From a virus, in the IMG/VR virus record IMGVR_UViG_3300037493_002946, positions 1 through 51,975 of that record: 51,975 nt of DNA; one strand, written 5' to 3'. Below are positions 6,185 to 48,047 of the stretch, piece by piece; the first letter of the stretch is position 1, and every line of letters starts with the position of its first letter. The position numbers and the translations under genes were made by a program. The notes beneath the pieces were generated by a model, which was not told the origin of the DNA, made no database searches, and was given only the letters and a program-made list of their open reading frames with translations.

Positions 6185-8830
6185 TTGAAGAAACTTCAAC
6201 AATTTTATATTTTTAGTTTTTCAAGCCAATATCTAAAGAAGCACAATTATAAAATAAAAGATATGGATTTGAATACAGCTAGAAAAAATAACTTCGTTAT
6301 ATCGGTATCAAAATCTCAACTCCTCGATACTATTATAGATATTGTTCGAGGAGGAGAGTTTTCTCAAAACGACCTAGAACGAATTTGGAGAAAGAGGACT
6401 TCTCTAAAAAGGAAGAAGAAAACACCAGAGTCTTATAAGACTCTGGTGGAACTTACTTCTCAAATAGATTCCTTATTGTTTGTTCCAGAACTAATTAGCG
6501 TAACGTTTGAACATGTTGCCCACTATAGAAAAATTGTAAAAGATGGGCTATCTATCAATGGTGAGAAATATGTTCGCCTTATGGCTGGAGCGGGACAACT
6601 CAGAAGAAAAACTGTGTTGTTTGTAAAATCATCACTAAGCGATAAGCTATTCTCCATATTTGAAAACGGTGTAGATAAGTCTAAAGAAATCAGTATGAGT
6701 AAGTTTGGTGCTTACACTGGACTATATTCTTCAGCAGGAAGAAAGGTTAGAACTCCAAGATATATTGTTATCAAAGACAAAGAGATAACCCGTAAAGATG
6801 ATTTAGTTCATTTTGTAAATTCAGATAATACCGTTGAAGAAAAAACTATGGACGTAACTTTGAATGTATTCGATGGTATGGGTTTGATTAGTATGGATAT
6901 GGCTAAGGAATGGCGGGAAGATTTAGGATTAGATTATGATGCTGTTCAGTTCATTATTCGTGCGCCATATATCAAAGGCTTATTGGTTTCTTTCCCCTTC
7001 AAGACTTTTGCACAAGAGAACAATATCAGCACTATCACAGACATATATGGAACTATACATAATATAGATGATGTGGATGTTATTCTTACTGAGAGTCAAT
7101 TCAAGATGAGTTCTTATTATTCCTCACTGGAAGAACACAAATCTAACTCAGTAAAAAATAAATTGAATTGGTATATTACAAGAACTAATCCCAAAAAAGA
7201 AAAATCTAACATATGGACTTCTTACCAGTATATTCAAGTTTGTAAAAACTCAATAAACATTGAGAATTTAGTTAAGGATACTCTGGAATATTTTGAGGAT
7301 GTTTCTTCTTTAGATGCTGATAAGTCTCTTATTTATTTTACTGGAGATACCGATACAGATAATATAGAGTTCTCTAGAATTGATAATTATCATCTAAAGT
7401 TATTGTCTCTGGATAAGAGAGTTATACGAGACCCATATATCAGAAAGCATATTGTAAATACCCTCAATAAAAAAATAAAAGAAAGTTATAGCGGTAAGAT
7501 AATGATTGATGGTCACTATAGTTTTATGATGGCTGACCCTTATGCTTTATCTCAACATGCTTTTGGAATTGAGGTTTCTGGTATCTTGAAAGAAGGAGAG
7601 TTCTTTAGTCAATATTGGAATGATAAAGATATCAAAAGAGTTTCTGCTGGCAGAAGTCCTTTAACTTGGAGGTCTGAATTATGCACTCTGGACTTTATAA
7701 GTAATCAAGAATCGAAGAAGTGGCTATCTCACCTGACTAGTGGAGTTGTTCTAAATATCTTTGGTAATGATATTATGAAGTTTGCCGATTCTGATTATGA
7801 TGGAGATATGATTTGGACATCTAGCAATGAGGAAATAATCAATAACACTTATGGTGGCATTCCCGTAACCTATGATAAAAGAAAAGTTCCCAAAACATCT
7901 TTTGATTATTCGGTTCTTCCAAAAATAGAGGAGAAGTCATTTGGTACTAAGATTGGGCTTATAACCAACTTTTCGACCACTCTTTCGGCATTACTCCCTT
8001 TTTATACCGAGGGTAGTAAACAGTATCAAGAAATAATGAATAGACTTATTGTGTGTCGAAAGTTACAGGGAGAATCTATCGATTCTGTTAAGGGACTAGA
8101 GATAAGTGAATTACCTAAATGGTCTAAAAATATAAAAGATAACGAACTTCACAACGAGTTACTTCTAAAGAAGAGACCTTTTTTTATGCGATATCTTTAT
8201 CAGTATAAAAATAAGGAATTCGTAAAACATCATAAAATATACAATGTTTATTCTTGGGTAAAATTTGGATTGTCAATTGATGATTTACTTTTGATTTCTA
8301 ATCCGACAGAAGAACAGTCCGTTGTCATTTTGAAATACGATAGATACTCTCCCCTTATTCTTTCTTCCGATTCCGTAATGGAACGTCTATCGAGATACAT
8401 GGTTGAAAAAGTAAAAGAAATTAAAGTTGAATCTAGAAAAAATGAATTCGATTACTCTGTATATATGAATAAGAGAATTGGTGAAGATGATTCTCTAAAA
8501 GAACCCCTTCTTAAGTTGATACGAGAATATAATAAGATAAAAAAGAATTTATACCGCTCAGACGACTTCGAAAATAAACAACAAGTATTTGAATACATAA
8601 AGGGAAAAGTATTTGAGATTAGCTATGATTTAGATATGCTTACAAATATGGTTGTTGTTCTTTGCTATAGAGACGGAAAAAACGAAAATTTCCTACACGA
8701 CATCTTTGAAGATGGTGTTATGAATAATGTTATGAGAAATAAACGAACCTTTAGATTTCCAGTTGAAGATATCAATGGAGAAGTAGAATTTTGTTACAAG
8801 AAGTATTCTATAAAAAACTTTGATTTGTAG
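6185..8830 (+). CDS. YonO-like single-chain RNA polymerase (two-barrel type)
   Basis: An 881-residue protein; TTG start after CAGGAG. The key evidence is FADSDYDGDMIW (533-544), the metal-binding DxDGD signature of double-psi beta-barrel polymerases (D537, D539, D541). It is preceded by GRSPLT (489-494) at the place of the NRAPTLH motif of beta-prime, and by GHYSFMMADPYALSQHAFG (before 470). A basic AGAGQLRRKTVLF block (134-146) may belong to the first barrel. Length and layout match phage YonO (SP-beta) and QDE-1-related enzymes, which carry both barrels on one chain. It is probably a DNA-directed RNA polymerase for later phage genes. A degenerate polymerase cannot be excluded. Confidence 0.78.
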   Translation: MKKLQQFYIFSFSSQYLKKHNYKIKDMDLNTARKNNFVISVSKSQLLDTIIDIVRGGEFSQNDLERIWRKRTSLKRKKKTPESYKTLVELTSQIDSLLFVPELISVTFEHVAHYRKIVKDGLSINGEKYVRLMAGAGQLRRKTVLFVKSSLSDKLFSIFENGVDKSKEISMSKFGAYTGLYSSAGRKVRTPRYIVIKDKEITRKDDLVHFVNSDNTVEEKTMDVTLNVFDGMGLISMDMAKEWREDLGLDYDAVQFIIRAPYIKGLLVSFPFKTFAQENNISTITDIYGTIHNIDDVDVILTESQFKMSSYYSSLEEHKSNSVKNKLNWYITRTNPKKEKSNIWTSYQYIQVCKNSINIENLVKDTLEYFEDVSSLDADKSLIYFTGDTDTDNIEFSRIDNYHLKLLSLDKRVIRDPYIRKHIVNTLNKKIKESYSGKIMIDGHYSFMMADPYALSQHAFGIEVSGILKEGEFFSQYWNDKDIKRVSAGRSPLTWRSELCTLDFISNQESKKWLSHLTSGVVLNIFGNDIMKFADSDYDGDMIWTSSNEEIINNTYGGIPVTYDKRKVPKTSFDYSVLPKIEEKSFGTKIGLITNFSTTLSALLPFYTEGSKQYQEIMNRLIVCRKLQGESIDSVKGLEISELPKWSKNIKDNELHNELLLKKRPFFMRYLYQYKNKEFVKHHKIYNVYSWVKFGLSIDDLLLISNPTEEQSVVILKYDRYSPLILSSDSVMERLSRYMVEKVKEIKVESRKNEFDYSVYMNKRIGEDDSLKEPLLKLIREYNKIKKNLYRSDDFENKQQVFEYIKGKVFEISYDLDMLTNMVVVLCYRDGKNENFLHDIFEDGVMNNVMRNKRTFRFPVEDINGEVEFCYKKYSIKNFDL

Positions 8831-8838
8831 GAGGAATA

Positions 8839-9588
8839 TTGTCTGAAGAAAAATCTAAAAAGATTATCATAGATGAAGAACAAGAGGTTCTTCGCATTCT
8901 TACTAATCCAGAAAAAGAATTTAATTATAAGTCTATTTATCTTTTAGCAAAATACTATTACTCTTTAGGTCTGCCTAAAAAACTTGTCAGAAAGAATATC
9001 TTAGATTATCTAGATAAGATAGAGTTTCATAATGAAGTATTTTATGATAAAGACTTAGATAAGATATTGAACACAAGCCAACTCTATCAACTAAAAAGAG
9101 CAGATTTACACGTAGGGATAACAAAGAGCGAGATTGAAATACTTCGGCATTTATCTCATAAAGATTACCGAGTAGCTCTGTACATTCTGTTCTTGGGAAA
9201 GATAGATAAATATCAATCTCTAAAAAAGAATGAGACAAAGGTAAAGAGTTTCAAAACTTTCTTAAATCACAGTATAAAAACTTGTGCGTATAACGCTGGC
9301 ATAAGTCTTTCCGAAAAAGAATCCTTATTATTAGGTCACAGATTGTGTTTAGCTGGAGTGATTGAACCTACTTTTATTGAGGATACTTTTGTAATTTCTT
9401 GTGCTGATTATTCCGATAAGAAGATAGCGTTTATAATAGATGGTAAAAAAGATTTCCTCTCTCAAATAAATTACTACTGTGTTTCGTGCGGTAAAGAAAC
9501 AAAGAAGAATAAGCATGATTATTGTGTAGAATGCTATAAAGGTGTTAGAAATGAGCAGAAGAGATTGTGGTGGAAAAATAGAAAATAA
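8839..9588 (+). CDS. Zinc-ribbon protein downstream of the RNA polymerase
   Basis: A 249-residue basic protein with TTG start after AGGAGGAA, 8 nt behind the polymerase-like gene. The C-terminus carries a four-cysteine zinc ribbon, YYCVSCGKE...HDYCVECY (about 212-233), followed by a basic tail. The N-terminal part is helical (YKSIYLLAKYYYSLGLPKK). Tight linkage with the RNA polymerase gene suggests a nucleic-acid-binding partner such as a primase-like, helicase-loader or transcription accessory factor; none of these is shown. It overlaps the longest possible reading of the next frame but not its preferred start. Confidence 0.65.
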   Translation: MSEEKSKKIIIDEEQEVLRILTNPEKEFNYKSIYLLAKYYYSLGLPKKLVRKNILDYLDKIEFHNEVFYDKDLDKILNTSQLYQLKRADLHVGITKSEIEILRHLSHKDYRVALYILFLGKIDKYQSLKKNETKVKSFKTFLNHSIKTCAYNAGISLSEKESLLLGHRLCLAGVIEPTFIEDTFVISCADYSDKKIAFIIDGKKDFLSQINYYCVSCGKETKKNKHDYCVECYKGVRNEQKRLWWKNRK

Positions 9589-9616
9589 ATCGCCTAAGAA
9601 TTTGGAGAATAAGGAA

Positions 9617-10573
9617 ATGTATAAAAAAGATATTAGCGGAATGATTTTTGGAAATTTCAAAGTTATAAAAAGAGTTCCAACTCCAGAAAAGTATGTCGGA
9701 AAAATAAGGGCGAGTTTTTGGTTGTGTTCTTGTTTATTTAATAATTGCGGAAAAGAGGTTATATTAAGTCGGGCTTGGTTGGCTACAGGGAGAGTTAAAA
9801 CTTGCGGATGCGGTCAGTATATAAGGAAAAGTCTTGTGGGAGAACGCTTCGGTAGACTAACGGTAATTCAAAGAGTGGAAAACTATGTTTTTCCTTCGGG
9901 GAAAAAAACCACTCAGTGGCTTTGTTTATGCGATTGCGGAAACTATGTCAAAAGAAGAACAAAGGTTTTAAAAGATAAAGGATTAAGTTCTTGCGGTTGT
10001 TACAATGAAGAACGTTTAAGGTCTGGAATTGGAATAACTCCTTTTTATGATTTGAGTGGAAGAAGATTTGGAAGACTTTTGGTTATAGAAAGACACGACC
10101 AAAACAATAATGGAAATATTGTTTTGTGGAATTGTCAATGTGATTGTGGAGAGATAACTACCTGCACAGGAGTTTCTTTAAAAAAAGGAGACACAAAATC
10201 CTGTGGTTGTTTAAAGGGAACAAATCAATCTTGGGTAGCTTTAGAACTTAAAAAATATTGCATAGAAAAATATTCCGCCATTCCCGAATACAATATTTTA
10301 ATAAATCCAGAAACGGGACATTTTCTACCCTATGATATATATTTACCAAATGAAAATATCTTTGTAGAAGTTAATGGAAAGCAACATTATGAGCCAATAA
10401 AGGCATATTTCCTAACTGATGATGACTTTAAATATCAAAAGAAAAAAGACAGAATAAAAAAGAAATTCGCAAAAAATAATGGCTTTTATATAGAAATAGA
10501 CTTGAGAAAAATAAAAACATTAGAAAAGGCTGTTTTGTTTTTAGAGAAACAAATAAGTCTACTAGACTTTTAG
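9617..10573 (+). CDS. Free-standing homing-type endonuclease, Vsr-like fold
   Basis: 318 residues from ATG 9617; the longer GTG frame (9542) would sit inside the upstream gene without a ribosome site. Three repeats of FGxLxVIxR...W.C.CDCG...SCGC (about 13-65, 75-130, 145-200) form zinc-binding DNA-recognition modules. The C-terminus (LPYDIYLPNENIFVEVNGKQHY, then RIKKKFAKNNGFYIEIDL) matches the Vsr-like/EDxHD nuclease core of phage homing enzymes: acidic residue, E-x-NGKQHY, and late Lys. It lies between the zinc-ribbon gene and PhoH and interrupts an otherwise tight operon, as expected of an invading element. AT-rich codon use (AAA, ATA) agrees with that. Confidence 0.75.
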   Translation: MYKKDISGMIFGNFKVIKRVPTPEKYVGKIRASFWLCSCLFNNCGKEVILSRAWLATGRVKTCGCGQYIRKSLVGERFGRLTVIQRVENYVFPSGKKTTQWLCLCDCGNYVKRRTKVLKDKGLSSCGCYNEERLRSGIGITPFYDLSGRRFGRLLVIERHDQNNNGNIVLWNCQCDCGEITTCTGVSLKKGDTKSCGCLKGTNQSWVALELKKYCIEKYSAIPEYNILINPETGHFLPYDIYLPNENIFVEVNGKQHYEPIKAYFLTDDDFKYQKKKDRIKKKFAKNNGFYIEIDLRKIKTLEKAVLFLEKQISLLDF

Positions 10574-23339: not shown

Positions 23340-24281
23340 ATGGGAAAATATGCATCAAGTAAAGAGTTAAAAAAATTCATAAGTAGTTTCGGGTTCATAT
23401 ATATAAGAGATTTTTTTGATAAAAATAGAAAACGTTATATAGATTTTAAAGATACAGAAGGGTATTTATATTCTTCTTATGTTTATAGTTTAAAAAAATC
23501 TTTTATTCCATCAAAAATATCGGAGAGAAGTAAATTCTCCATAATAAACATAAAAAGATTTTTAAAAAATAATAATAAATCTTTTTATTTAAAAAGAAAT
23601 TTTAAAAATTATAAAGGTAGAAGCTTTAAAATTTCTTTTACATGTAAAAACTGTAAAGAAGATTTTGAATCAACTTGGTCTCAAGTGGAAAGAGGAGATG
23701 CTTGTCCTTATTGTTCTAACCACAGACCTACAAAAGAAAAAAACTTGCTTTCATTATACCCCATCGTTTGTCTGGATTGGGATTATAAAAAAAACAAAAA
23801 CATTTTACCTGAATCTATTCTGCCGCAACACAATAAGAAAGTTTTTTGGAAATGTCACGTTTGCCACCACGAGTGGTTCACCAGCCCAAACAGTAGGGTG
23901 GGTGGAGGAAGAGGGTGTCCAGAATGTGCGCCAAGTTCCAAGGGAGAGGTTTACATCTCTAAACTATTAAAAGATATGAACATAAAGTTTCTAAAACAAC
24001 ATAAATTTCCTAATTGTAAAAACAGGCTTTGTCTTATTTTTGATTTTTATCTTCCCGATTATAATATGTGTATTGAATATAATGGAAAGCAACATTATGA
24101 ACCCATAGAATTTTTTGGTGGAATAAAAACATTTAAAGAATTACAAATAAATGATAATATAAAAAAAGATTATTGTAAAAAAAATAAAATTGATTTATTG
24201 ATATTGTCTTACAAAGAAGATAAAAATATTGAAAAAATATTATCAAAAAATATAAATATAAAGGAGGTCTTATATGGCTAG
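23340..24281 (+). CDS. Free-standing homing-type endonuclease, Vsr-like fold
   Basis: 313 residues, ATG after GGAG. It has two zinc-ribbon modules, CKNCKEDFESTW...CPYC (about 102-123) and CHVCHHEWFTSP...CPEC (about 177-199). The C-terminal nuclease core reads LIFDFYLPDYNMCIEYNGKQHYEP, then KKDYCKKNKIDLLILSY, matching Vsr-like/EDxHD homing enzymes (D-x-x-L, E-x-NGKQH, late K). It sits between terL and the portal gene; its 3' end overlaps the portal start by 8 nt and holds the portal ribosome site, so it uses the junction without harming its neighbours. It is extremely A-rich and paralogous to the gene at 31257. Confidence 0.78.
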   Translation: MGKYASSKELKKFISSFGFIYIRDFFDKNRKRYIDFKDTEGYLYSSYVYSLKKSFIPSKISERSKFSIINIKRFLKNNNKSFYLKRNFKNYKGRSFKISFTCKNCKEDFESTWSQVERGDACPYCSNHRPTKEKNLLSLYPIVCLDWDYKKNKNILPESILPQHNKKVFWKCHVCHHEWFTSPNSRVGGGRGCPECAPSSKGEVYISKLLKDMNIKFLKQHKFPNCKNRLCLIFDFYLPDYNMCIEYNGKQHYEPIEFFGGIKTFKELQINDNIKKDYCKKNKIDLLILSYKEDKNIEKILSKNINIKEVLYG

Positions 24282-30708: not shown

Positions 30709-31257
30709 ATGGCGACTCATAATGTTTTAATTCAGAGAAAAGTGGCGGCTAAGAATATTGATTCATTCAATCGCTCTGCCGTTCATGCTACAGTTGATTT
30801 TGATAATGGTAATCTTTGCTCTTTGAGCGGTCTTTCGACCACCGATGGTGAAGGCGAAGTATTTAGCGCGGCTGTTCCTGCTACCGCCACTCTGTCTAAC
30901 AAACTTTGGATGGTTTATACACCCGAAGTTGTTGTGACCATTTCTGGTACTAAGAAATTCAAAGGTATCAATGTTGACCCACAGGATTTCTATGTTCCCG
31001 CTCTTTCGGTTATGGATGTGTTCAAACCCCAGGTCGGTGATATCATCACAATGACCGCTGATGGTTTGGCTACTGGTTCTGGTGCTGCCTCAGCTTTTGC
31101 TATTGCCGCCGATGGCGTTCAGAAACTCACTTGGGCTGCCGCTGCAATTTCTGGTCTTACCTTTGCTTATCTTGGCGCAGATTATATCTCGCTTGGCTCT
31201 GGTGCAATTAATTCTCAGCGCGTGGCTGCATATCGACTGGAGTGCGTTGTTGTTTAA
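30709..31257 (+). CDS. Capsid decoration / head protein
   Basis: 182 residues after AAAGGAG. A beta-rich protein with VLIQRKVAAKNIDSFNRSA at the start and an Ala/Gly-rich centre. Location between scaffold/protease and major capsid genes, and codon use enriched in GCC, ACC and CGC, fit a head decoration protein made in large amounts. The last codons overlap the next endonuclease gene (TAATG at 31255-31259). Confidence 0.68.
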   Translation: MATHNVLIQRKVAAKNIDSFNRSAVHATVDFDNGNLCSLSGLSTTDGEGEVFSAAVPATATLSNKLWMVYTPEVVVTISGTKKFKGINVDPQDFYVPALSVMDVFKPQVGDIITMTADGLATGSGAASAFAIAADGVQKLTWAAAAISGLTFAYLGADYISLGSGAINSQRVAAYRLECVVV

Positions 31258-32207
31258 TGGCTGAAAAAAACTCAAAGAAATATGTTAAAGAAGTTTTGAA
31301 AGAATTGGGATATATACTCATCTCAGATTATGAAGGAACAAAGAAAAGTATTATTTTTAAAGACAAAGAAGGCTATAAATATAGTTTAACTTTTGATGCT
31401 TTTTTAACTTCTAGAAGAAAGAAGGTTCATCCCTCTAAATTTTCAAAAAGAAACATATTCACTATTGAGAATATAAAGATGTGGATAAATAAAAATAAAA
31501 AATCATTTATATTAAATGAAAATAATGTTTTTATTTCTGCATCAAAAAGAAATCTTGTTTTTAATTGTTTAAACTGCCATAAAGATTTTTCTACTGCTTG
31601 GAATGATGTCCAACAAGGAAGAATTTGTCCTTATTGTACTATACATAATGCACACATAAACCACAGAATATCATTAGAAAAAGTCCAAAGTATATTTGAT
31701 GAAATGACAGTTTCTCCTCTCGATATTAATCAATTTTCGGGGTATGAAAAAAAGATGGATGTGATGTGTGATATTTGTGGGTATATATGGTCTTCAAAAT
31801 TTGGTAATATAAAATATGGATATGCTTGCCCAAAATGTAAATCCTCTAAGGGAGAAAAAAGAATTGAATCTTTTTTGATAGAAAATAAAATAAGATACAC
31901 TCCTCAAAAATCCTTTGAGGAGTGTAAGTATGATAAGAGACTTAGATTTGATTTTTATATTCCCTCATTAAATATTCTTATAGAATATAATGGAGGACAA
32001 CATTATTTTCCTGTGGATTTTTCTTATAGCGGAAATGAAAAAAAGGCAAACACCTCTTTCGAAAAAATAAGAGCAAGAGATAGAATAAAGTTAGATTATT
32101 GTAAATCTAACAGTATAAAATTATTGATTATATCGTATAAGGATTATATGAATATAGAAAAAATTCTAAATAAAGAAATCTTAACAAAAAATAAAATCGG
32201 AGGATAA
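31257..32207 (+). CDS. Free-standing homing-type endonuclease, Vsr-like fold
   Basis: 316 residues from ATG 31257, overlapping the stop of the decoration gene by one base; the in-frame GTG at 31242 would lie inside that gene. Two zinc ribbons are seen: CLNCHKDFSTAW...CPYC (about 106-128) and CDICGYIWSSKF...CPKC (about 168-190). The nuclease core LRFDFYIPSLNILIEYNGGQHYFP, then RIKLDYCKSNSIKLLIISY, is close to that at 23340, with G in place of K in NGKQH. The gene is far more A/T-rich than the decoration and capsid genes flanking it, a sign of insertion between them. Confidence 0.78.
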   Translation: MAEKNSKKYVKEVLKELGYILISDYEGTKKSIIFKDKEGYKYSLTFDAFLTSRRKKVHPSKFSKRNIFTIENIKMWINKNKKSFILNENNVFISASKRNLVFNCLNCHKDFSTAWNDVQQGRICPYCTIHNAHINHRISLEKVQSIFDEMTVSPLDINQFSGYEKKMDVMCDICGYIWSSKFGNIKYGYACPKCKSSKGEKRIESFLIENKIRYTPQKSFEECKYDKRLRFDFYIPSLNILIEYNGGQHYFPVDFSYSGNEKKANTSFEKIRARDRIKLDYCKSNSIKLLIISYKDYMNIEKILNKEILTKNKIGG

Positions 32208-39878: not shown

Positions 39879-40358
39879 ATGTATATAATCACATTTGATT
39901 TAAGTTTGAATTCAACTGGATATTGTGTTTTTACTGATAAAGGAAAATTTATCGATAAGGGAACAATTGCTCCAAGTTTAGAGTTTGATATTCAAAATAA
40001 ATTAAAGTTTATAGCAGATAAGGTAAAAAAATTGAAAAGGAAATATGATATAAAATATATCATTATTGAACGCGGATTTTCACGTTTCAATGAAATTACA
40101 CAGAAATTATTTAGAGTTGTTGGACTTATAAATTATTTGTTTTACGATGTAGAACAAATTTATATTACTGCCAAATCAGTAAGAAAAATCATATGCGGTA
40201 ATGGAAATATAAAGAAAGAAGATTTTTTTATGTTTATAAAAGATAATAATAAAAAAATAAAATTCAATAATAATGATGAGGGGGATGCTTATGCTTTAGG
40301 CAAAGCATATTTTCTTCAACAAAAAGAGGTTATAAAAAATGGCAAGAAAAACATTTAA
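39879..40358 (+). CDS. RuvC-like Holliday junction resolvase
   Basis: 159 residues, ATG after GAGG. The RNase H-like fold shows all acidic residues of RuvC-type nucleases: D7 in FDLSLNSTGY, E64 in YIIIERGFS and the DEGDA cluster (D133, E134, D136) in the C-terminal helix. It should cut branched DNA with Mg2+, clearing recombination intermediates before packaging. Its location between tail genes is out of place for a DNA-processing enzyme. It overlaps the integrase gene by 20 nt, suggesting both arrived or are regulated together. Confidence 0.85.
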   Translation: MYIITFDLSLNSTGYCVFTDKGKFIDKGTIAPSLEFDIQNKLKFIADKVKKLKRKYDIKYIIIERGFSRFNEITQKLFRVVGLINYLFYDVEQIYITAKSVRKIICGNGNIKKEDFFMFIKDNNKKIKFNNNDEGDAYALGKAYFLQQKEVIKNGKKNI

Positions 40359-41361
40359 ACAAAAAATTGTAACAGATGAATTGATTGAAAAAATCAATTC
40401 AAAAAACAGAAAACTTATGGACGCTTTTTTAAAAGAAAAGAACACCCGCTCTTCGGATACCACCATTGAGGCTTACAGGAGTGATTTATATATTTTCTTT
40501 TGCTACAATGTTTTGTATAATGAAAATAAGTTTTTTATAGATATAAAAAAATTAGAATTTGCAGATTTCTTTTCTTATGTTACAAGTGAATTGCAATGGA
40601 AGTCGGCAAGATTCTCAAGGATGAGGGCGTGTTTATCTTCGCTATCTCAATTTATTGAGAAGTTTTATGATGATGAATATCCTATGTTCAAAAACACAAT
40701 ACTTAAGGTTGTAGAAAACATGCCTAAGAATGAAGCAAGAGAAAAAACAATTTTAAGTGAACCCGATATCAATAAATTATTGGGACATCTGAAAAATAAA
40801 GATACTCAGCAAGCATGTTGGCTTGCTTTGGCTTTTGCTTCAGGTGCAAGGTTTAGTGAACTCCTTCGTTTTACTGTTGATTTGATTGATGAAAATAGAA
40901 CCGCATTTGAAGGTATATTTTTAGAAACAACTAAGATGATGAAGACAAAAGGAAGAACTAAAACTGGTAAAATGATTTATAAATATATCGTCAAAGATAT
41001 TTTTTTACCATATTATAAATTATGGATTGAAGAACGTTCTGAGATTTTGAAATCTAATGATGTCAAAGAACATGGATATTTATTTGTAAAGAAAGATGGA
41101 ACTCCTGCTGTGGCTGGAACTGTTAGAAGTTGGATAACTGGAATGACTTCGTATATGGGAGTTGATATTTATCCCCATGCCTTTAGACATTCTATTACCA
41201 CTCATTTATCTACTGTTGGTTTACCTGACGCATTGATTCAGGAAATTATGGGCTGGAGCAACGCACTCATGGTCGCAGTTTATAATGATGTTACTGCTAA
41301 AGATAAAAAGTGGAGTGAATTGGATGGCTTCAGAAAAGATTTAGACGATAAAAAGATATAG
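40339..41361 (+). CDS. Tyrosine recombinase (integrase/Xer-like)
   Basis: 340 residues, ATG inside the 3' end of the resolvase gene. An N-terminal SAM-like core-binding domain (about 30-130) precedes the catalytic domain with R171 (SGARFSELLR), a K-containing beta-hairpin (about 200-210), H280-x-x-R283 (HAFRHSITTHL), W306 in place of the second His (GWSN) and nucleophile Y315 (VAVYNDVT). The catalytic set is complete. It could be a phage integrase or a genome-dimer/inversion recombinase. Placement within the tail module, away from any visible attachment site or repressor, is odd. Confidence 0.88.
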   Translation: MARKTFKQKIVTDELIEKINSKNRKLMDAFLKEKNTRSSDTTIEAYRSDLYIFFCYNVLYNENKFFIDIKKLEFADFFSYVTSELQWKSARFSRMRACLSSLSQFIEKFYDDEYPMFKNTILKVVENMPKNEAREKTILSEPDINKLLGHLKNKDTQQACWLALAFASGARFSELLRFTVDLIDENRTAFEGIFLETTKMMKTKGRTKTGKMIYKYIVKDIFLPYYKLWIEERSEILKSNDVKEHGYLFVKKDGTPAVAGTVRSWITGMTSYMGVDIYPHAFRHSITTHLSTVGLPDALIQEIMGWSNALMVAVYNDVTAKDKKWSELDGFRKDLDDKKI

Positions 41362-41396: not shown

Positions 41397-42715
41397 ATGG
41401 CAAACGATAATTTAAAGTTAATGATAGATGCTGTTGTCAATACTTTAAAAATTGATGGGGCTATGAAGAAATTTAGAGCAGAAAATTCTAAATTAAACAT
41501 AGAGATTAGTACACAAAATTTAACTAAACAACTTCAAGATGTAAAAACAAAATTAAAAGATGCTTTTAAGAACCTTTCTCCAGATATGGCTCAACAAGCC
41601 AAAGACCTTAGAAATAAAATTAACAAAGATGTTGGCAGTATCGCATCTCCTAAGTCTAGATGGGGAACGGAAGCTGTTGCGGGTGGATTATCAAGAATCA
41701 AAGAAAATACAAAAGCTCTTGAAGATTTATTAAATAAACAAAAACAAATCGATTTAGAAAAACAAAATGCTTTAAATAAACAAAAAAGTCAATTACAAGA
41801 AATTGAAGTAAAGAACGCAGAAAATGCTGAAACAGAGCGACAAAGAATTAAAGATATTGAAAACACAAGGGCTAACGCACAAAGAAATGAACTTGCTAGG
41901 ATACAAAAAAAGGCAGAAGCTCAACAAGAGGCATCTAGAAAATTAAGTGAAAAATATTGGGAAAATAGAGAAAAAGAAATAAAAAGAGACAAAAATATAG
42001 AAAATGATAGAGCTAACGCAACCAGAAACTATATAGACCAGCAAACAAAACTCGGAAATGCCGCCGCTCAAAAGGCAAAAGTATTCATGGCTGGAACGGG
42101 TAATTATGCTCCAACAGATTCTTTATCTGACGCAAAAAGAAAAGCTGAAGCCATTATAAGAATTAATAATTCTATGGCTAATATGTCTCCAGATAATATG
42201 TTTAAGGCTAATGCCAAAATAAAGACTCTTTCTGGTGAGATGGATGTTTTAGGTAAAAGTTTTAAAAAGACAACCACAGAATCGGATAATTTTATTCAAA
42301 AATTAGGAGCATCAGCAAAACAATTTGTATATTATCAGATTGCTATTAGAGGTATGTATGAAGCACTTAATCAGCTTAGATTAGGAATTCAATATATTAA
42401 AGATTTAGATAAGGAAATGACATCTATTCAATTGGTTACTGGTCAGAGTGATGAGTCACTTAATACTTTAGCTAAGTCTTATAACACTCTTGGTAAGGAA
42501 ATGGGTGTTTCTACTTTAGAGGTGGCTAAAGGGAGTCTCGAATTCATCAGGCAGGGTAAGACAGCAGAAGAAACCGCTACACTTATCAAGAATTCTACTC
42601 AGTTATCTAAGTTAGCTAATATGGATGCCGCCGCAAGTTCTGAAGCTTTAACTTCTATTATGAATGGTTTCAAGATGGAAGCGGAAGAAACTACTCAAGT
42701 TGTAGATAAGTTGGT
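41397..42715 (+). CDS. Tape measure exon 1
   Basis: 439 codons plus two bases. An N-terminal coiled coil (about 10-230, including a long Glu/Lys/Gln-rich stretch) is followed by the start of the TP901 domain (EMTSIQLVTGQSDESLNTLAKSYN). It ends at GTAGATAAGTTGGT. Reading on into the intron adds only a short unrelated tail before a stop at 42786-42788. Confidence 0.87.
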
Positions 42716-45700
42716 AAAATATTTGCCAAAACATATGGTGACATATGGGTATAATAATTATTGCATAAATTTATGTTTTATGGTATAATTATTCCTGAAG
42801 ATGACTATATCGGTCAAACTCAATTCGCATGAAGAGACCGAGGAAAGAGCTATTTTATATAATTTAAAAATGAGGCATAATGAATAGAAAAAGATGGACT
42901 GAAGAAGAAACTAAAAGGTTCAAGAAAATTTATTCTACAACATCTCAAGAAGAACTGTCTGTTATTTTTGAAAGAAGCGTTTCTTCTTTAGAAAGTAGAG
43001 CGTCTAAATTAGGACTTAAAAAATTAGTAAATAATGTTGGAAAAAGAATCTTTACTAAAAGAGAAATAAAAAAAATATTCAATATGGTAAAAATAAAAAG
43101 CGTTCCAGAAATAGCAAAGGAACTCAATCGAGAAAAAGAATCCATCTATATTCTTTTAAAAAGAAACAACGTAGAATATTTAAAATCTGATTTTTGGTGG
43201 AGTGAATTAGATACTCAAGTCTTAATTGACTATTACGAAGGTTCTTCAAAGGAATTTCTTGAAAAAAAATTAGATAAAAAATGGAAAACCATTAGTAAAA
43301 AAGCAAGAACTTTAGGGCTGAAAAGGTATAGAAGCAATGGGGAAGTCTATGTCGCAAATGATTTAATTACTGAAGAAGAAAGAACCTTTATATTGGAAAA
43401 TTTTGAAAATATGACAATCACACAGATGACTCATACCATAAATAGAACTTGTTATTTGGTTGTAAAAGTTTGTAGAGATAATAATTTATCTGAATTTAAA
43501 ATGAGAAAAAATCCAGAAGATTTTACTAATGAATTTTTATTAGAAAAATTGAAAGAGCTTGGAAAAGAATTCGGAAGATGTCCAACAACGGGTGAAATTC
43601 AAAAAAGTAGAGACCTCCCTTCTATAGATACATACTATGATAGATTTGGAACTTTTTCTAATGCTTGTGAAATGGCTGGATTTGTTTTCAATAGTGGGAC
43701 GTATGGTATAGGTTGTTATTCTAAAAACGGAGATAAATGTTTATCAATAAGAGAACAAATCATAACTAATTTTTTAATAGATAATCGTGTAGCATATGAA
43801 AAAGAAAAATATTATCATGAAATTATAGATACTCTAAATGAAAATATAGTTATGGACTGGTATCTGGAAGATTTTCATACCGTTGTTGAATTTTTTGGGT
43901 TGAATAATAAAGAATACAACAAAAAAACAAAAAGAAAAATAAAATTATGTAAAAACAATGAAATAAACATTATTGCAATTTACGAAAAAGACATGTCGAA
44001 ACTAGGTGAAATATTTAAAAATTATATAAAATAGCAATCCCTACAGACTGCGGGGGGTATATAGAGATATGTACCCTGAAGTCATCCTCTCTTTATAAGA
44101 GAAGAATATACAGTCGGAACAATGGCATGAGCGAACATGTGTAAACCATTGAGTTAAGAAGAAATTCTTAACCGCCACAAATATTTGTGGTTATAATAGG
44201 CGTTATCCCTAAAAGTAACAGTTGGAGTATTGATAACATTGCGGCGACCTCAGCAGCTAAAAAATTTGGCTGAACATATAGTAATATATGGATAATCATA
44301 AATGATTATTAGAAGATAACTATATCGGTTAAAATCTATTCGCACAGATAAGACCGAGGTAACATGTGAAAGCATGACACCCTAACGACTACAGGGAATG
44401 TGTGGTAACATATATTCTGAAGTTATCCCCTCTTTTTAAGAGGTGAATATTTAGTCTGAACAGTATGTATGCATAAAGATACTGAAGATGGATGAAAGTC
44501 CATCTCGCTTTTATATACTATATAAAAGTCATAAAAGTAACAGATTGGAATTAGCAAAAGCAATGCAATATACGGCATCAGCCGCACAAATTACTGGTAT
44601 AGACTTTGACCACCTCGCTGCGTACATTGGGACAATCTCAAGTGTAACTCGACTCTCGGCGGAGTCTATCGGACAAAGCATAATTTTTTTTGATAATCGT
44701 GCTTTTGTGGCATAATACATAAACCACATTATAAAATTTCTTCTGATTAATGGGGAAAGTCTATATAAAAATAGATAACCCTCAACAAGCAAGGATTATT
44801 CCTGTGCAGTTGCAACGACTAAGTGAAGAAACTCCATTTTTTATGGAGAAGCGATAGTCTAAACTACAAGTATATATAAAGTTGTAGAGAAGAGGTCAAG
44901 TGTAAAGACACTTTTAGAAGCACCTTTTCCGCTTGATTATATAAATTAATCAAGTCATAAAAGTAATAGAGTGGAAGACCATTATGCTCAGAATGACCGC
45001 AATCAAAAACATGGATGCGTTTGATTCTGAAGGCGAGGCAGTAAATAAAGTAGAAGATTCTCTTAAGAATGTAGGTGTACAATTAAGAGATAGCAATGGA
45101 AAATTTAGAGAATTGCAAGATGTTATAGATGAACTTGCTGGAAAGTGGAGTACGTTAAATAAAGAAGACCAGTTATTTATTGCTCAACAAATAGGCGGTA
45201 AAATGAATGCCGCAACTCATGGTAACATGAGGATTGATTATTACAATTGTTATATTCAATCGGATGGATACTATATCGGTCAAAGTCTAATCGCATAGAT
45301 AAGACCGAGGTAACATGTGAAAGCATGACACCCTAACGACTACAGGGAATGTGTGGTAACATATATTCTGAAGTACCTTTCCAAAATAATTTTGGAAAAA
45401 TATATAGTCTGAACTGCAAATATATACTGCGAAAATATTGAAATTGCAGACATAGGAAGAAACTCCTATGCGCCACATTGATTTGTGGTCACGTTTCATT
45501 GGCTTATGAAACAAAGTAACAGAAATGGTTCGGCAAGCCGATAAGTTACTCGCCCTCCTAGGAAATGAAGCAGAAATAAGAAAACAACTAAACGCAGAAA
45601 AAGCATCAGGCGGATTAGCAGATGAAAGATATTTAATATATCTTGAATCTGTTGAAGCTGCTCAAAATAAAATGACAGCATCTTGGGAAAAGATGATTTC

Positions 45701-48047
45701 ATCTTCTGCCTCTGAGAAATTGATAACTGGTTTATATGAAACGGGGGCAGCAATATTGGATATTGTTACCGCCGTAGGGGGATTAGCCCCAATCCTAATA
45801 ACGGCAGGATTGGCGTATGCCGCATTTGCATCAGAAATAAGTTTATCTTCTGTGATTGCAACCTTGTCGGTTGTCACCTTGCAGGGCGGAGTTGCCGCCC
45901 TAGGTGCTGAAATCTTGGCGTTAATGGCTACAAATCCTGTGGGATGGGCAATTTTAGCGGTTGGTGCAATTGTCATGATTGCAAACGCCATTCCTACTGC
46001 TCAAGAAAGATTGGATAAACTAAATGAATCCATAGCGGAGCATGAAAAGACAATCTCCTCATTGAAAGATAAATCTAATCAAATAACTTCTCTTGGGGTA
46101 GAGTATCAAAAACTAAAAAAAGAAGTTGATAAAACAGGGGTTTCATCCCAAGCGTTTTTAGATGTTCAAAATAAACTGCATGAACTAGTACCCTCTCTTA
46201 CTGGTAAATTTGACGCATATGGAAACTATATTTTAAATACCAGTCAAAATATGGATACCCTTAATACTTCTACTCAAAAGCAAATTGAGTTAGAAGAAAA
46301 ATTGATGCAGATTGAATTAGATAAATCTGCAAAAAAAAGTGCAAAAAGTTTAAAGACCTTGTATAACGTTGCACAAAATGAGGGAATAACCGCTGGCGGG
46401 ACAACCATATACCTACCAGAAGAACAACAATTAAAAAATGAACTCGCTTATATTAAAGCCCTAGAATCAGAAAAATCCAGATTTAGAAAAATGGGTGATG
46501 ATGCCCAACAGGAATATATTGCTGAACTAACTGGAAGCGATATTCAAAAAGTTTTCCTAGACATAATTGATGAAATTATGGACAAGGCTAAAGACATAGT
46601 TGAACAATCTCCACCAATAAAAATACCAGTAACATTATCATTAAAAGAACAAAAAGATAAATTATTTGAAGACCTTATAGCTAATCAAGATTTTAGTAAA
46701 TTGACATCTGAAATTGTTGATATGCTCAAAAGAATTGCAAACGCTAAAAAAGACGCTCTTCAAAAAGAATTGAAAGACTTAAAAGATAAAGATGATAAAA
46801 TTAAAGAGAGTTATAAACTTCAAATAGAAAAAATTAAAGAAGTGAATGACGAGAAAAAGAGAGCATTAGAAGCGGAAGCAAAAGCCCAAAATGAACTTTA
46901 TGATTCTCAAAAGAAGGCAATCGAAGAACAACTAAAAGCATACGAGAGAATAATTGACTTCCAGAAAGAATCCATTCGGTTAAAGAAAGAGGAAGAAGAT
47001 TTCAATAATGCAAGAGCAGAAAAAGAAAAGGCTCTTGTGGATATATTAAATCAAATTTCAGTATTGAGTCTTGATACAAGTGAAGAAGCTATTGCACAAA
47101 GATTGACTCTTGAGGCAGAGGCATCTCAAATGATTCAAGAACTTGCTCAAAGTGATGCAGATAGAGCATACGAATTACAGATGCAAGCACTTGACGCAGA
47201 GCAACAAGCGGCTCAAGAAAGTGCAGATATTCAATTATCCGAGATTGAACAATCTCAGGCTCAATACGAAAGGGAGTCGGAATTAAGACAACAATCACTC
47301 GAAGAAGAAGTTATTTCTTCCGAGAAAAGATATGAAATAATCACGAAAGGTCTTGATGATTCTTATGCCGCAAAAGAAAAATCTTTGAATGAACAAATTT
47401 CTCTCGTAGATGATTATCTTGAAAAAGAAGGAAATCTAAGAAGAGAAGCAATGGATATTGTTTTGGCTCAAAATGATTCGACTCTAAAACAATTGACTGA
47501 ATGGAATAGAGAGTATGGAACAGGAATAGATAATGATATTACTAAAATGTGGGAAGCGGCTACATTGGCAGTTGAAGATTATACTAAAGCATTATTTGCG
47601 GCTTCACAAATCCCGTTCCCGTCTGGAGACCCTTCCCAAAACTCCGAGTATGTTGATGTTTATAATGGTAGAAATAATCCCAATGTTTTATACGCAGGAA
47701 GACACAGCGGGGTAAAATCTGGATTTGTTGGAAATCAACCAAAATTAAAATCTAATGAAGAATTTGCAAAACTTCTAGATGGAGAACTGGTTGTCAATTC
47801 AAAACAAATGGATACATTTATGAAAAATTTATCTCCTGCAACAATGAATTCTAATCCATCGTCATCATCAAGTAATTTTGCTGGCGGTGTGAGCATGGGA
47901 AATCTTATGAACATTGTTGTAAATGGTTCATTAGATAAAACAATATTACCATCAATAAAAAATATTGCAGACCAAGTATTAGATGAATTAAACAAAGCAT
48001 TGCTAATTAGAGGTTCTAATAGAACAGCAAACTTATTTGGTAATTAA
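41397..48047 (+). CDS. Tape measure protein, five exons split by four group I introns
   Basis: The spliced gene joins 41397-42715, 44225-44258, 44548-44681, 44974-45199 and 45528-48047, giving 1410 residues in one frame. Joined junctions read DKLV/SIDNIAATSAA/ELAKAM, GQSM/KTIMLRM and QQIGG/VRQADKLL, restoring a continuous TP901-type tape-measure domain (about 330-650). Coiled coils flank it, and a hydrophobic segment follows in exon 5. The protein sets tail length and may help DNA enter the cell. Each junction has a 5' exon ending in U and an intron ending in G. Without splicing every exon before the last would end in a stop. ATG follows AAGGAGGTG. Confidence 0.88.
42761..42789 (+). promoter_or_regulatory. 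Promoter inside intron 1
   Basis: TTGCAT (42761-42766), a 17-nt spacer and TATAAT (42784-42789) with TGG before the -10. The -10 context TATGGTATAATTAT is identical to that of the promoter at 11907-11935. It would express the endonuclease independently of late transcription. Confidence 0.65.
42880..44034 (+). CDS. Intron-encoded homing endonuclease (EDxHD/Vsr-like) with SANT-like repeats
   Basis: 384 residues, ATG after GAGG. The N-terminus carries SANT/Myb-like or helix-turn-helix DNA-binding repeats (RWTEEETKRFKKIYSTTSQEELSVIF; a second near residue 105, WWSELDTQVLIDYYEG). The C-terminus has the nuclease core of the I-Bth0305I type: REQIITNFLIDNRVAYEKEK, IVMDWYLEDFHTVVEFFGL, and TKRKIKLCKNNEINIIAIYEKDM. 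It would cut intronless tape-measure alleles and promote intron spread. Its DNA-binding part differs from the zinc-ribbon enzymes elsewhere in the window. The frame is complete, so it may be active. Confidence 0.82.
   Translation: MNRKRWTEEETKRFKKIYSTTSQEELSVIFERSVSSLESRASKLGLKKLVNNVGKRIFTKREIKKIFNMVKIKSVPEIAKELNREKESIYILLKRNNVEYLKSDFWWSELDTQVLIDYYEGSSKEFLEKKLDKKWKTISKKARTLGLKRYRSNGEVYVANDLITEEERTFILENFENMTITQMTHTINRTCYLVVKVCRDNNLSEFKMRKNPEDFTNEFLLEKLKELGKEFGRCPTTGEIQKSRDLPSIDTYYDRFGTFSNACEMAGFVFNSGTYGIGCYSKNGDKCLSIREQIITNFLIDNRVAYEKEKYYHEIIDTLNENIVMDWYLEDFHTVVEFFGLNNKEYNKKTKRKIKLCKNNEINIIAIYEKDMSKLGEIFKNYIK
44225..44258 (+). CDS. Tape measure exon 2, 34-nt micro-exon
   Basis: Encodes SIDNIAATSAA with one shared base at its 5' end (GT + G). 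It begins right after intron 1 (ending TTG) and ends GCAGCT before intron 2. The translated piece matches the conserved stretch expected between DKLV and ELAKAM in tape-measure proteins. Confidence 0.85.
44259..44547 (+). ncRNA. Group I intron 2 (289 nt, no endonuclease)
   Basis: P1: CAGCT (44254-44258) with GGCTG (44268-44272), U-G at the splice site. P7: GACTA (44387-44391) with TAGTC (44452-44456). It ends AAAGTAACAGATTG. Its core 44346-44423 is identical over 78 nt to that of intron 4. It is compact and ORF-less, so mobility would depend on an endonuclease in trans. Confidence 0.86.
44346..44423 (+). repeat. 78-nt direct repeat, copy in intron 2
   Basis: Identical to 45297-45374 in intron 4, from AGATAAGACCGAGG to TCTGAAGT. 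It spans the central catalytic core including the 5' strand of P7. Sequences outside diverge. Confidence 0.85.
44548..44681 (+). CDS. Tape measure exon 3
   Basis: 134 nt encoding ELAKAMQYTASAAQITG...TISSVTRLSAESIGQS plus AT of the next codon, which is completed by G of exon 4 to Met. This is the most conserved block of TP901 tape measures. Reading on into intron 3 adds a short chance tail. Confidence 0.85.
44682..44973 (+). ncRNA. Group I intron 3 (292 nt, distinct lineage)
   Basis: P1: AAAGCAT (44675-44681) with GTGCTTT (44699-44705), U-G at the splice site. The R-like element TTGCAACGACTAAGTG and S-like GCGATAGTCTAA give P7 44817-44821 with 44855-44859. Unlike introns 1, 2 and 4 it lacks the TATCGGT...GACCGAGG block, but shares the 3' end AAAGTAATAGAGTG. 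No coding capacity. Confidence 0.84.
44974..45199 (+). CDS. Tape measure exon 4
   Basis: 226 nt encoding KTIMLRMTAIKNMDAFDSEG...LQDVIDELAGKWSTLNKEDQLFIAQQIGG. It ends GGCGGT with a complete codon. The unspliced frame would continue with KMNAATHGN and stop in the intron. Confidence 0.85.
45200..45527 (+). ncRNA. Group I intron 4 (328 nt, no endonuclease)
   Basis: P1: GCGGT (45195-45199) with GCCGC (45209-45213), U-G at the splice site. P7: GACTA (45338-45342) with TAGTC (45405-45409). It ends CAAAGTAACAGAAATG. A 3' domain GAAGAAACTCCTATGCGCCAC resembles GAAGAAATTCTTAACCGCCAC of intron 1, while its core is shared with intron 2, so it looks like a mosaic or intermediate of the two. Confidence 0.86.
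45297..45374 (+). repeat. 78-nt direct repeat, copy in intron 4
   Basis: Identical to 44346-44423 in intron 2. Recombination between the copies would delete exons 3 and 4 together with intron 3. Confidence 0.85.
45528..48047 (+). CDS. Tape measure exon 5
   Basis: 839 codons and a stop. VRQADKLLALLGNEAEIRKQ completes the TP901 domain. Hydrophobic helices follow (about 45740-46010; APILITAGLAYAAF, NPVGWAILAVGAIVMIANAIP), then long coiled coils (about 46700-47450). The C-terminus YAGRHSGVKSGFVGNQPK...EFAKLLDGELVVN is typical of tape-measure ends. Confidence 0.88.
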   Translation, partial: VRQADKLLALLGNEAEIRKQLNAEKASGGLADERYLIYLESVEAAQNKMTASWEKMISSSASEKLITGLYETGAAILDIVTAVGGLAPILITAGLAYAAFASEISLSSVIATLSVVTLQGGVAALGAEILALMATNPVGWAILAVGAIVMIANAIPTAQERLDKLNESIAEHEKTISSLKDKSNQITSLGVEYQKLKKEVDKTGVSSQAFLDVQNKLHELVPSLTGKFDAYGNYILNTSQNMDTLNTSTQKQIELEEKLMQIELDKSAKKSAKSLKTLYNVAQNEGITAGGTTIYLPEEQQLKNELAYIKALESEKSRFRKMGDDAQQEYIAELTGSDIQKVFLDIIDEIMDKAKDIVEQSPPIKIPVTLSLKEQKDKLFEDLIANQDFSKLTSEIVDMLKRIANAKKDALQKELKDLKDKDDKIKESYKLQIEKIKEVNDEKKRALEAEAKAQNELYDSQKKAIEEQLKAYERIIDFQKESIRLKKEEEDFNNARAEKEKALVDILNQISVLSLDTSEEAIAQRLTLEAEASQMIQELAQSDADRAYELQMQALDAEQQAAQESADIQLSEIEQSQAQYERESELRQQSLEEEVISSEKRYEIITKGLDDSYAAKEKSLNEQISLVDDYLEKEGNLRREAMDIVLAQNDSTLKQLTEWNREYGTGIDNDITKMWEAATLAVEDYTKALFAASQIPFPSGDPSQNSEYVDVYNGRNNPNVLYAGRHSGVKSGFVGNQPKLKSNEEFAKLLDGELVVNSKQMDTFMKNLSPATMNSNPSSSSSNFAGGVSMGNLMNIVVNGSLDKTILPSIKNIADQVLDELNKALLIRGSNRTANLFGN

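What the first reader, a model, noticed from the sequence alone, without database searches (positions are those of the whole stretch)
41397..48047. Tape-measure gene split by four group I introns
Seen directly: four insertions each break the frame, each 5' exon ends in U pairing with an internal guide by a U-G wobble (guides at 42725, 44268, 44699, 45209), each intron ends in G, each has a GACTR/YAGTC P7, and all five exons join into one 1410-residue frame. P7 of intron 1 (GACTG/CAGTC) is a compensatory change relative to the others. Known phage introns usually number one to three per gene; four within about 2.8 kb of one late structural gene looks exceptional.
Basis: partly seen in the sequence, partly recalled or inferred. 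Interest (0 to 1): 0.95.

Follow-up and report, generated by a model that had tools for sequence, protein, structure and literature searches.

The report
Phage tail-ruler gene with four introns
A virus of bacteria carries four self-splicing RNA inserts (group I introns) in the gene for its tail-length ruler protein; the inserts are real, three of them sit at exactly the spots that introns use in other phages, and they go one beyond the best proven case, which has three.

Summary
Four insertions (42716-44224, 44259-44547, 44682-44973, 45200-45527) interrupt the tape-measure gene 41397-48047. Removing them gives one 1410-residue frame, which aligns without a gap to an uninterrupted homologue across all four junctions (62% identity over 340 residues; IMG/VR contigs L001/L002). 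A covariance model built only from other phages' tape-measure introns finds exactly these four and nothing else in 52 kb; intron 1 appears as two weak halves around its endonuclease gene. Rfam RF00028 misses all four, but it also passes only one of three proven introns in phage ICP1.

What is new is modest. ICP1's tape-measure transcript is already proven to have three introns. I found another four-intron case (L071), a probable one (L089), and many phages using exactly the window's sites 2, 3 and 4. Introns 2 and 4 share a 105-nt core at 96% identity inside dissimilar flanks, which suggests core exchange between introns of one gene. Intron 1 carries a homing-endonuclease gene whose nuclease domain is predicted to resemble I-Bth0305I. 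Splicing itself is inferred; no RNA data were available.

The parts
41397..42715 (+). Exon 1 of the tape-measure gene (1319 nt, starts ATG)
   Evidence: PF10145 PhageMin_Tail E=3.1e-11; joined frame
42716..44224 (+). Intron 1 (1509 nt), group I, with an endonuclease gene in the P6 region; P7 = 44046-44050 / 44111-44115 (GACTG/CAGTC); guide G 42725
   Evidence: P1 5 pairs, P10 7 pairs; model R2 hits 42797-42904 (E 0.038) and 44018-44120 (E 0.029); absent from homologue L001
42880..44034 (+). Homing-endonuclease gene (384 aa): N-terminal helix-turn-helix/Myb-like and homing-endonuclease repeat, C-terminal Vsr-like nuclease
   Evidence: PF18780 HNH_repeat 1.1e-13; C-domain model pLDDT 88, best PDB match 3r3p I-Bth0305I; relatives in contigs L059, L047, L033, L073, L016
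44225..44258 (+). Exon 2 (34 nt, about 11 codons)
   Evidence: Joined frame; matches the uninterrupted homologue
44259..44547 (+). Intron 2 (289 nt), group I, no ORF; P7 = 44387-44391 / 44452-44456; guide G 44268
   Evidence: R2 E=1.4e-5; fold z=-7.0; P1 5, P10 5 pairs; same insertion site as L021
44548..44681 (+). Exon 3 (134 nt)
44682..44973 (+). Intron 3 (292 nt), group I, second lineage, without the extra hairpin between P7 and P3'; P7 = 44817-44821 / 44855-44859; guide G 44699
   Evidence: R1 E=1.7e-19, R2 E=3.9e-6; covariation in A5; same site as 7 other loci
44974..45199 (+). Exon 4 (226 nt)
45200..45527 (+). Intron 4 (328 nt), group I, no ORF; core 101/105 identical to intron 2; P7 = 45338-45342 / 45405-45409; guide G 45209
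   Evidence: R2 E=6.9e-5; fold z=-6.5; P1 5, P10 5 pairs; same site as 6 other loci; identity to intron 2
45528..48047 (+). Exon 5 of the tape-measure gene (2520 nt, to the stop)

Best explanation
The window is part of a tailed-phage genome whose tape-measure gene holds four group I introns. In the transcript each intron folds into a ribozyme. An external guanosine bound at P7 cuts after the U of the U.G pair in P1, the freed exon attacks after the intron's last G, and four such reactions join five exons into one mRNA for a 1410-residue tape-measure protein. Intron 1 also encodes a homing endonuclease that would cut intron-less alleles at or near its insertion site and so copy the intron; introns 2-4 have no endonuclease and are inherited passively or moved by other endonucleases. 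Shown here: the insertions, exact junctions, ribozyme core with covariation, empty sites in a homologue, reuse of the same sites in other phages. Inferred from established group I biochemistry: actual splicing, the joined protein, and endonuclease activity.
For: Gap-free homologue across all junctions. P1 and P10 pairing at exactly the frame-restoring sites; among candidate intron-final Gs within 15 nt the chosen G gives the longest P10 in all four (shuffles). Window-free models: R1 finds intron 3, and the only five R2 hits are the four introns. R2 also finds, at E=2e-10, an intron (L039 site 4) that was not in its training set and that RF00028 recognises above its cut-off at 72.9 bits, which ties the models to the Rfam family. 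Covariation: 19 of 29 pairs (A5, includes intron 3) and 10 of 20 (A7, relatives) have double changes, with no shuffle reaching the covariation score. Splicing of a three-intron tape-measure transcript is proven in ICP1.
Against: No RNA or protein data. RF00028 finds none of the four. The R2 hits of intron 1 are weak (E 0.03-0.04) because the endonuclease gene splits the core. P3 of intron 4 has a mismatch and P10 of intron 3 only 2 pairs, so one or both could splice poorly.
Confidence: 0.93

Rival explanations
1. The four insertions are group I introns by descent, but one or more no longer splices efficiently, so the tape-measure protein is made only in part, as fragments or as shortened forms by exon skipping.
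For: Intron 4 P3 mismatch and intron 3 short P10; exon 2 is only 34 nt. Skipping exons 2+3 (168 nt) or 3+4 (360 nt) would keep the frame (lengths).
Against: The tape-measure protein is required for tail assembly in long-tailed phages (general knowledge); all exon reading frames are intact and all four P1, P7 and 3' splice sites are well formed; the exons that could be skipped encode the most conserved part of the protein.
Confidence: 0.06
2. The tape-measure gene is a broken pseudogene or an assembly artefact.
For: Raw ORF calls give several fragments; the record is a metagenomic contig.
Against: Every insertion has a ribozyme core and precise splice sites, and its removal restores the frame exactly; related insertions sit at the same sites in independent contigs and near site 1 in a named phage.
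Confidence: 0.01
3. The insertions are other elements such as inteins, group II introns or insertion sequences.
For: All of these can interrupt phage genes.
Against: Stop codons inside, no intein, reverse transcriptase or transposase domain in the intron 1 ORF, sizes of 289-328 nt for the other three, and group I P1, P3, P7 and P10 present.
Confidence: 0.005

Closest known systems
Vibrio phage ICP1 tape-measure gene (PMC10448857)
   Same: Same gene; several group I introns, some with endonuclease genes; splicing proven by RNA-seq and RT-PCR
   Different: Three introns and four exons; HNH-3 endonucleases; the protein is too distant to compare insertion sites
Bastillevirinae group I introns (PMC11878797)
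   Same: Phage group I introns, mostly IA-like, up to three per gene, several proven to splice
   Different: In DNA polymerase, terminase, thymidylate synthase and ribonucleotide reductase genes; none reported in the tape-measure gene
Staphylococcus phage Twort orf142 (Landthaler and Shub 1999; title as cited, gene name recalled)
   Same: One phage gene with three group I introns
   Different: Other gene, three introns, exon skipping reported
I-Bth0305I homing endonuclease (PDB 3r3p)
   Same: Best PDB fold match for the nuclease domain of the intron 1 endonuclease
   Different: 13% identity; N-terminal DNA-binding part not compared; catalytic residues not tested

Membership tests
Group I intron | 5' exon ends in U paired with a G in the internal guide (P1) | tested here: met
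   All four, 5-7 pairs
Group I intron | Intron ends in G; 3' exon start can pair as P10 | tested here: met
   All end in G; P10 7, 5, 2 and 5 pairs; P10 is not required in every group I intron
Group I intron | P7 and P3 pseudoknot with P4-P6 and P8 | tested here: met
   Covariation including P7 in A5 with intron 3; for introns 1, 2, 4 through model R2 and by sequence; intron 4 P3 has one mismatch
Group I intron | Match to Rfam RF00028 above its cut-off | tested here: not met
   No match even at E 10. This is a property of one library model, not a defining feature of the class: proven ICP1 introns also score 38.9 and 28.9 against a cut-off of 50
Group I intron | Self-splicing with guanosine | not testable with these tools
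   Needs RNA
Group IA subgroup | Extra pairings (P7.1/P7.2) between P7 and P3' | tested here: inconclusive
   Introns 1, 2, 4 have a 60-62 nt P7-P7' interval with a hairpin; intron 3 has 33 nt without it; no subgroup models on hand
Mobile (homing) group I intron | Encoded endonuclease | tested here: met
   Intron 1 only: PF18780 and Vsr-like nuclease fold; activity not tested
EDxHD / Vsr-like homing endonuclease | Fold of I-Bth0305I | tested here: met
   Foldseek prob 1.00, E=6.5e-3, TM 0.56/0.64 on a predicted model
EDxHD / Vsr-like homing endonuclease | Catalytic EDxHD residues | not tested
   Residues were not superposed on 3r3p

The most novel reading that the evidence does not exclude
The tape-measure domain is a shared landing ground for group I introns across unrelated phages, where introns of different lineages settle at the same codons and then exchange their catalytic cores inside one gene while keeping their own guide sequences, so one gene accumulates four or more introns. 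Skipping exon pairs that keep the frame could even give shorter rulers.
Probability: 0.35. Interest if true: 0.6.

Novelty: new member of a known kind. Interest (0 to 1): 0.43.

Why it matters
It extends the proven record of three introns in one phage tape-measure gene (ICP1) to a predicted four. It shows that fragmented tape-measure annotations in viral contigs can hide intron-split genes that Rfam misses. The reuse of the same insertion codons in many phages and the near-identical core in two different introns give a concrete system for studying how group I introns spread and recombine.

Tried and rejected
RF00028 at gathering score and at E up to 10: no hit in the window. DNA similarity of the gene and of intron 4 to phage records: none. 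The 21-base intron 2/4 core pattern in IMG/VR: none. Relatives of the full endonuclease by the search for related loci: none; a single-sequence model of it was useless (pLDDT 35). The homologue alignment A2 was too diverse for a collection scan. No close relative of the tape-measure protein in genome contigs. The tape-measure profile does not align ICP1's protein well enough to compare sites. Sequence search of the nuclease domain in PDB gave only chance hits; the fold search was needed. Placing the intron ends at '..CAG' broke the frame; the 3' ends that fit the frame, the homologue and P10 are '..TG'. Considered and rejected: pseudogene, assembly artefact, intein, group II intron, insertion sequence.

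Full report
OBSERVATION. The window is an IMG/VR virus record of 51,975 bases, classed linear. Between 41397 and 48047 the tape-measure reading frame is broken four times. All four introns end in TG and all 3' exons start with G.

INDEPENDENT PROOF OF THE JUNCTIONS. Two IMG/VR contigs (L001, L002) encode an uninterrupted homologue. The joined window protein aligns with it from residue 213 to its end at 46% identity, and over residues 321-660, which contain all four junctions, at 62% identity without a single gap. The empty sites are shown base by base. A separate script that maximised the fit to a profile of the domain plus P1 and a 3' motif recovered introns 3 and 4 exactly. It merged 1 and 2 because exon 2 is only 34 nt.

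RIBOZYME EVIDENCE. P1 has 5, 5, 7, 5 pairs and P10 has 7, 5, 2, 5; the chosen 3' G gives the longest P10 among candidate Gs within 15 nt for every intron, and shuffled guides rarely match the sums. Introns 2, 4 and 3 fold far better than shuffles. RF00028 finds none of them. As a yardstick, in ICP1, whose three tape-measure introns are proven, RF00028 gives 77.9, 38.9 and 28.9 bits against a cut-off of 50, and the Bastillevirinae survey also calls that model incomplete. I therefore built models from other phages' tape-measure introns, leaving the window out. R1 (A6, 7 introns) finds intron 3 at E=1.7e-19. R2 (A7, 8 introns, endonuclease genes removed) gives five hits in the window up to E 10, all in the four introns: 3 (3.9e-6), 2 (1.4e-5), 4 (6.9e-5), 1 in two halves (0.029 and 0.038). 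R2 also finds, at E=2e-10, the L039 site-4 intron, which was not in its training set and which RF00028 recognises at 72.9 bits. Compensatory changes are abundant: 19 of 29 pairs in A5, P7 included, and 10 of 20 in A7; no shuffle reached the covariation score and slid structures scored far lower. Part of that signal arises because the structures were derived from the same sequences.

SURROUNDINGS AND RELATIVES. The gene lies between a tyrosine-recombinase-like gene and a Dit-like tail gene in a tail module. A 21-base P9 element of intron 3 occurs in 79 IMG/VR stretches, and in somewhat under half of them the tape-measure domain is present, mostly split. Insertion sites coincide: window site 2 equals that of L021; site 3 equals those of L011, L024, L031, L051, L057, L074, L082; site 4 equals those of L030, L039, L042, L047, L059, L082; site 1 lies two codons upstream of the site used in L007 (Microcystis phage MaeS), L025, L039, L059. 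These loci were found through one intron family, so they do not estimate how common such introns are. L071 has its tape-measure domain in five pieces with a ribozyme core in each of the four gaps, three of them above the RF00028 cut-off. L089 (same contig as L021) has four cores among its pieces and probably four introns, two of them separated by a very short exon. Geobacillus virus E3, annotated with N- and C-terminal tape-measure genes, has a 304-nt insertion there.

EVOLUTION. Introns 1, 2 and 4 are one lineage; intron 3 is another. Introns 2 and 4 share 101 of 105 bases in the core but only about a quarter to 60% in the flanks; the P9 region of intron 4 resembles intron 1, and the 3' end of intron 2 resembles intron 3. 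Exchange of cores between introns of one gene is the simplest reading; duplication followed by replacement of the guide cannot be excluded.

ENDONUCLEASE. The intron 1 ORF has helix-turn-helix/Myb-like matches below cut-off and a homing-endonuclease repeat, and a C-terminal domain whose relatives lie in other contigs of the intron set, several of them inside tape-measure introns (L059, L047, L033; also L073, L016). The model of that domain (pLDDT 88) best matches the I-Bth0305I catalytic domain.

KNOWN WORK. The ICP1 tape-measure transcript has four exons and three introns, shown by RNA-seq and RT-PCR (PMC10448857). Up to three introns per gene are known in Bastillevirinae (PMC11878797) and in Twort (title cited there). 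I found no paper reporting four in one phage gene, but the library searched holds open-access papers only.

VERDICT. Real, correctly interpreted, a new member of a known kind with one intron more than the proven tape-measure record. RNA evidence is missing.

Noticed in passing
L071, tape-measure region on the minus strand: A second viral contig with four group I introns in the tape-measure gene, three above the RF00028 cut-off.
   Followed up: partly
L089 2284-5751: Tape-measure gene with four ribozyme cores; two may flank an exon of only a few codons.
   Followed up: partly
window 44315-44467 and 45259-45416: Introns 2 and 4 share a 105-nt core at 96% identity inside dissimilar flanks: probable core exchange.
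   Followed up: partly
window 6185-8827: 881-aa protein matches PF05183 RdRP (2e-19); possibly a YonO-like single-chain RNA polymerase of the phage (recalled, not tested).
   Followed up: no
window 9542-10570, 23340-24278, 31242-32204: ORFs near essential genes, not in an R2-type intron: two match HNH-endonuclease PHROGs; 23340-24278, between terminase and portal, has mainly a DUF4379 zinc-finger match.
   Followed up: no
window 39879-41361: A RuvC-like gene and a tyrosine recombinase gene sit inside the tail module directly before the tape-measure gene, an odd place for an integrase.
   Followed up: no
L003 3319-3622 (Geobacillus virus E3): A predicted 304-nt intron lies between the annotated N- and C-terminal tape-measure genes of a named phage.
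   Followed up: partly
L092 38500-43800 (ICP1): RF00028 passes only one of three experimentally proven introns, a measure of how many phage introns Rfam can miss.
   Followed up: yes
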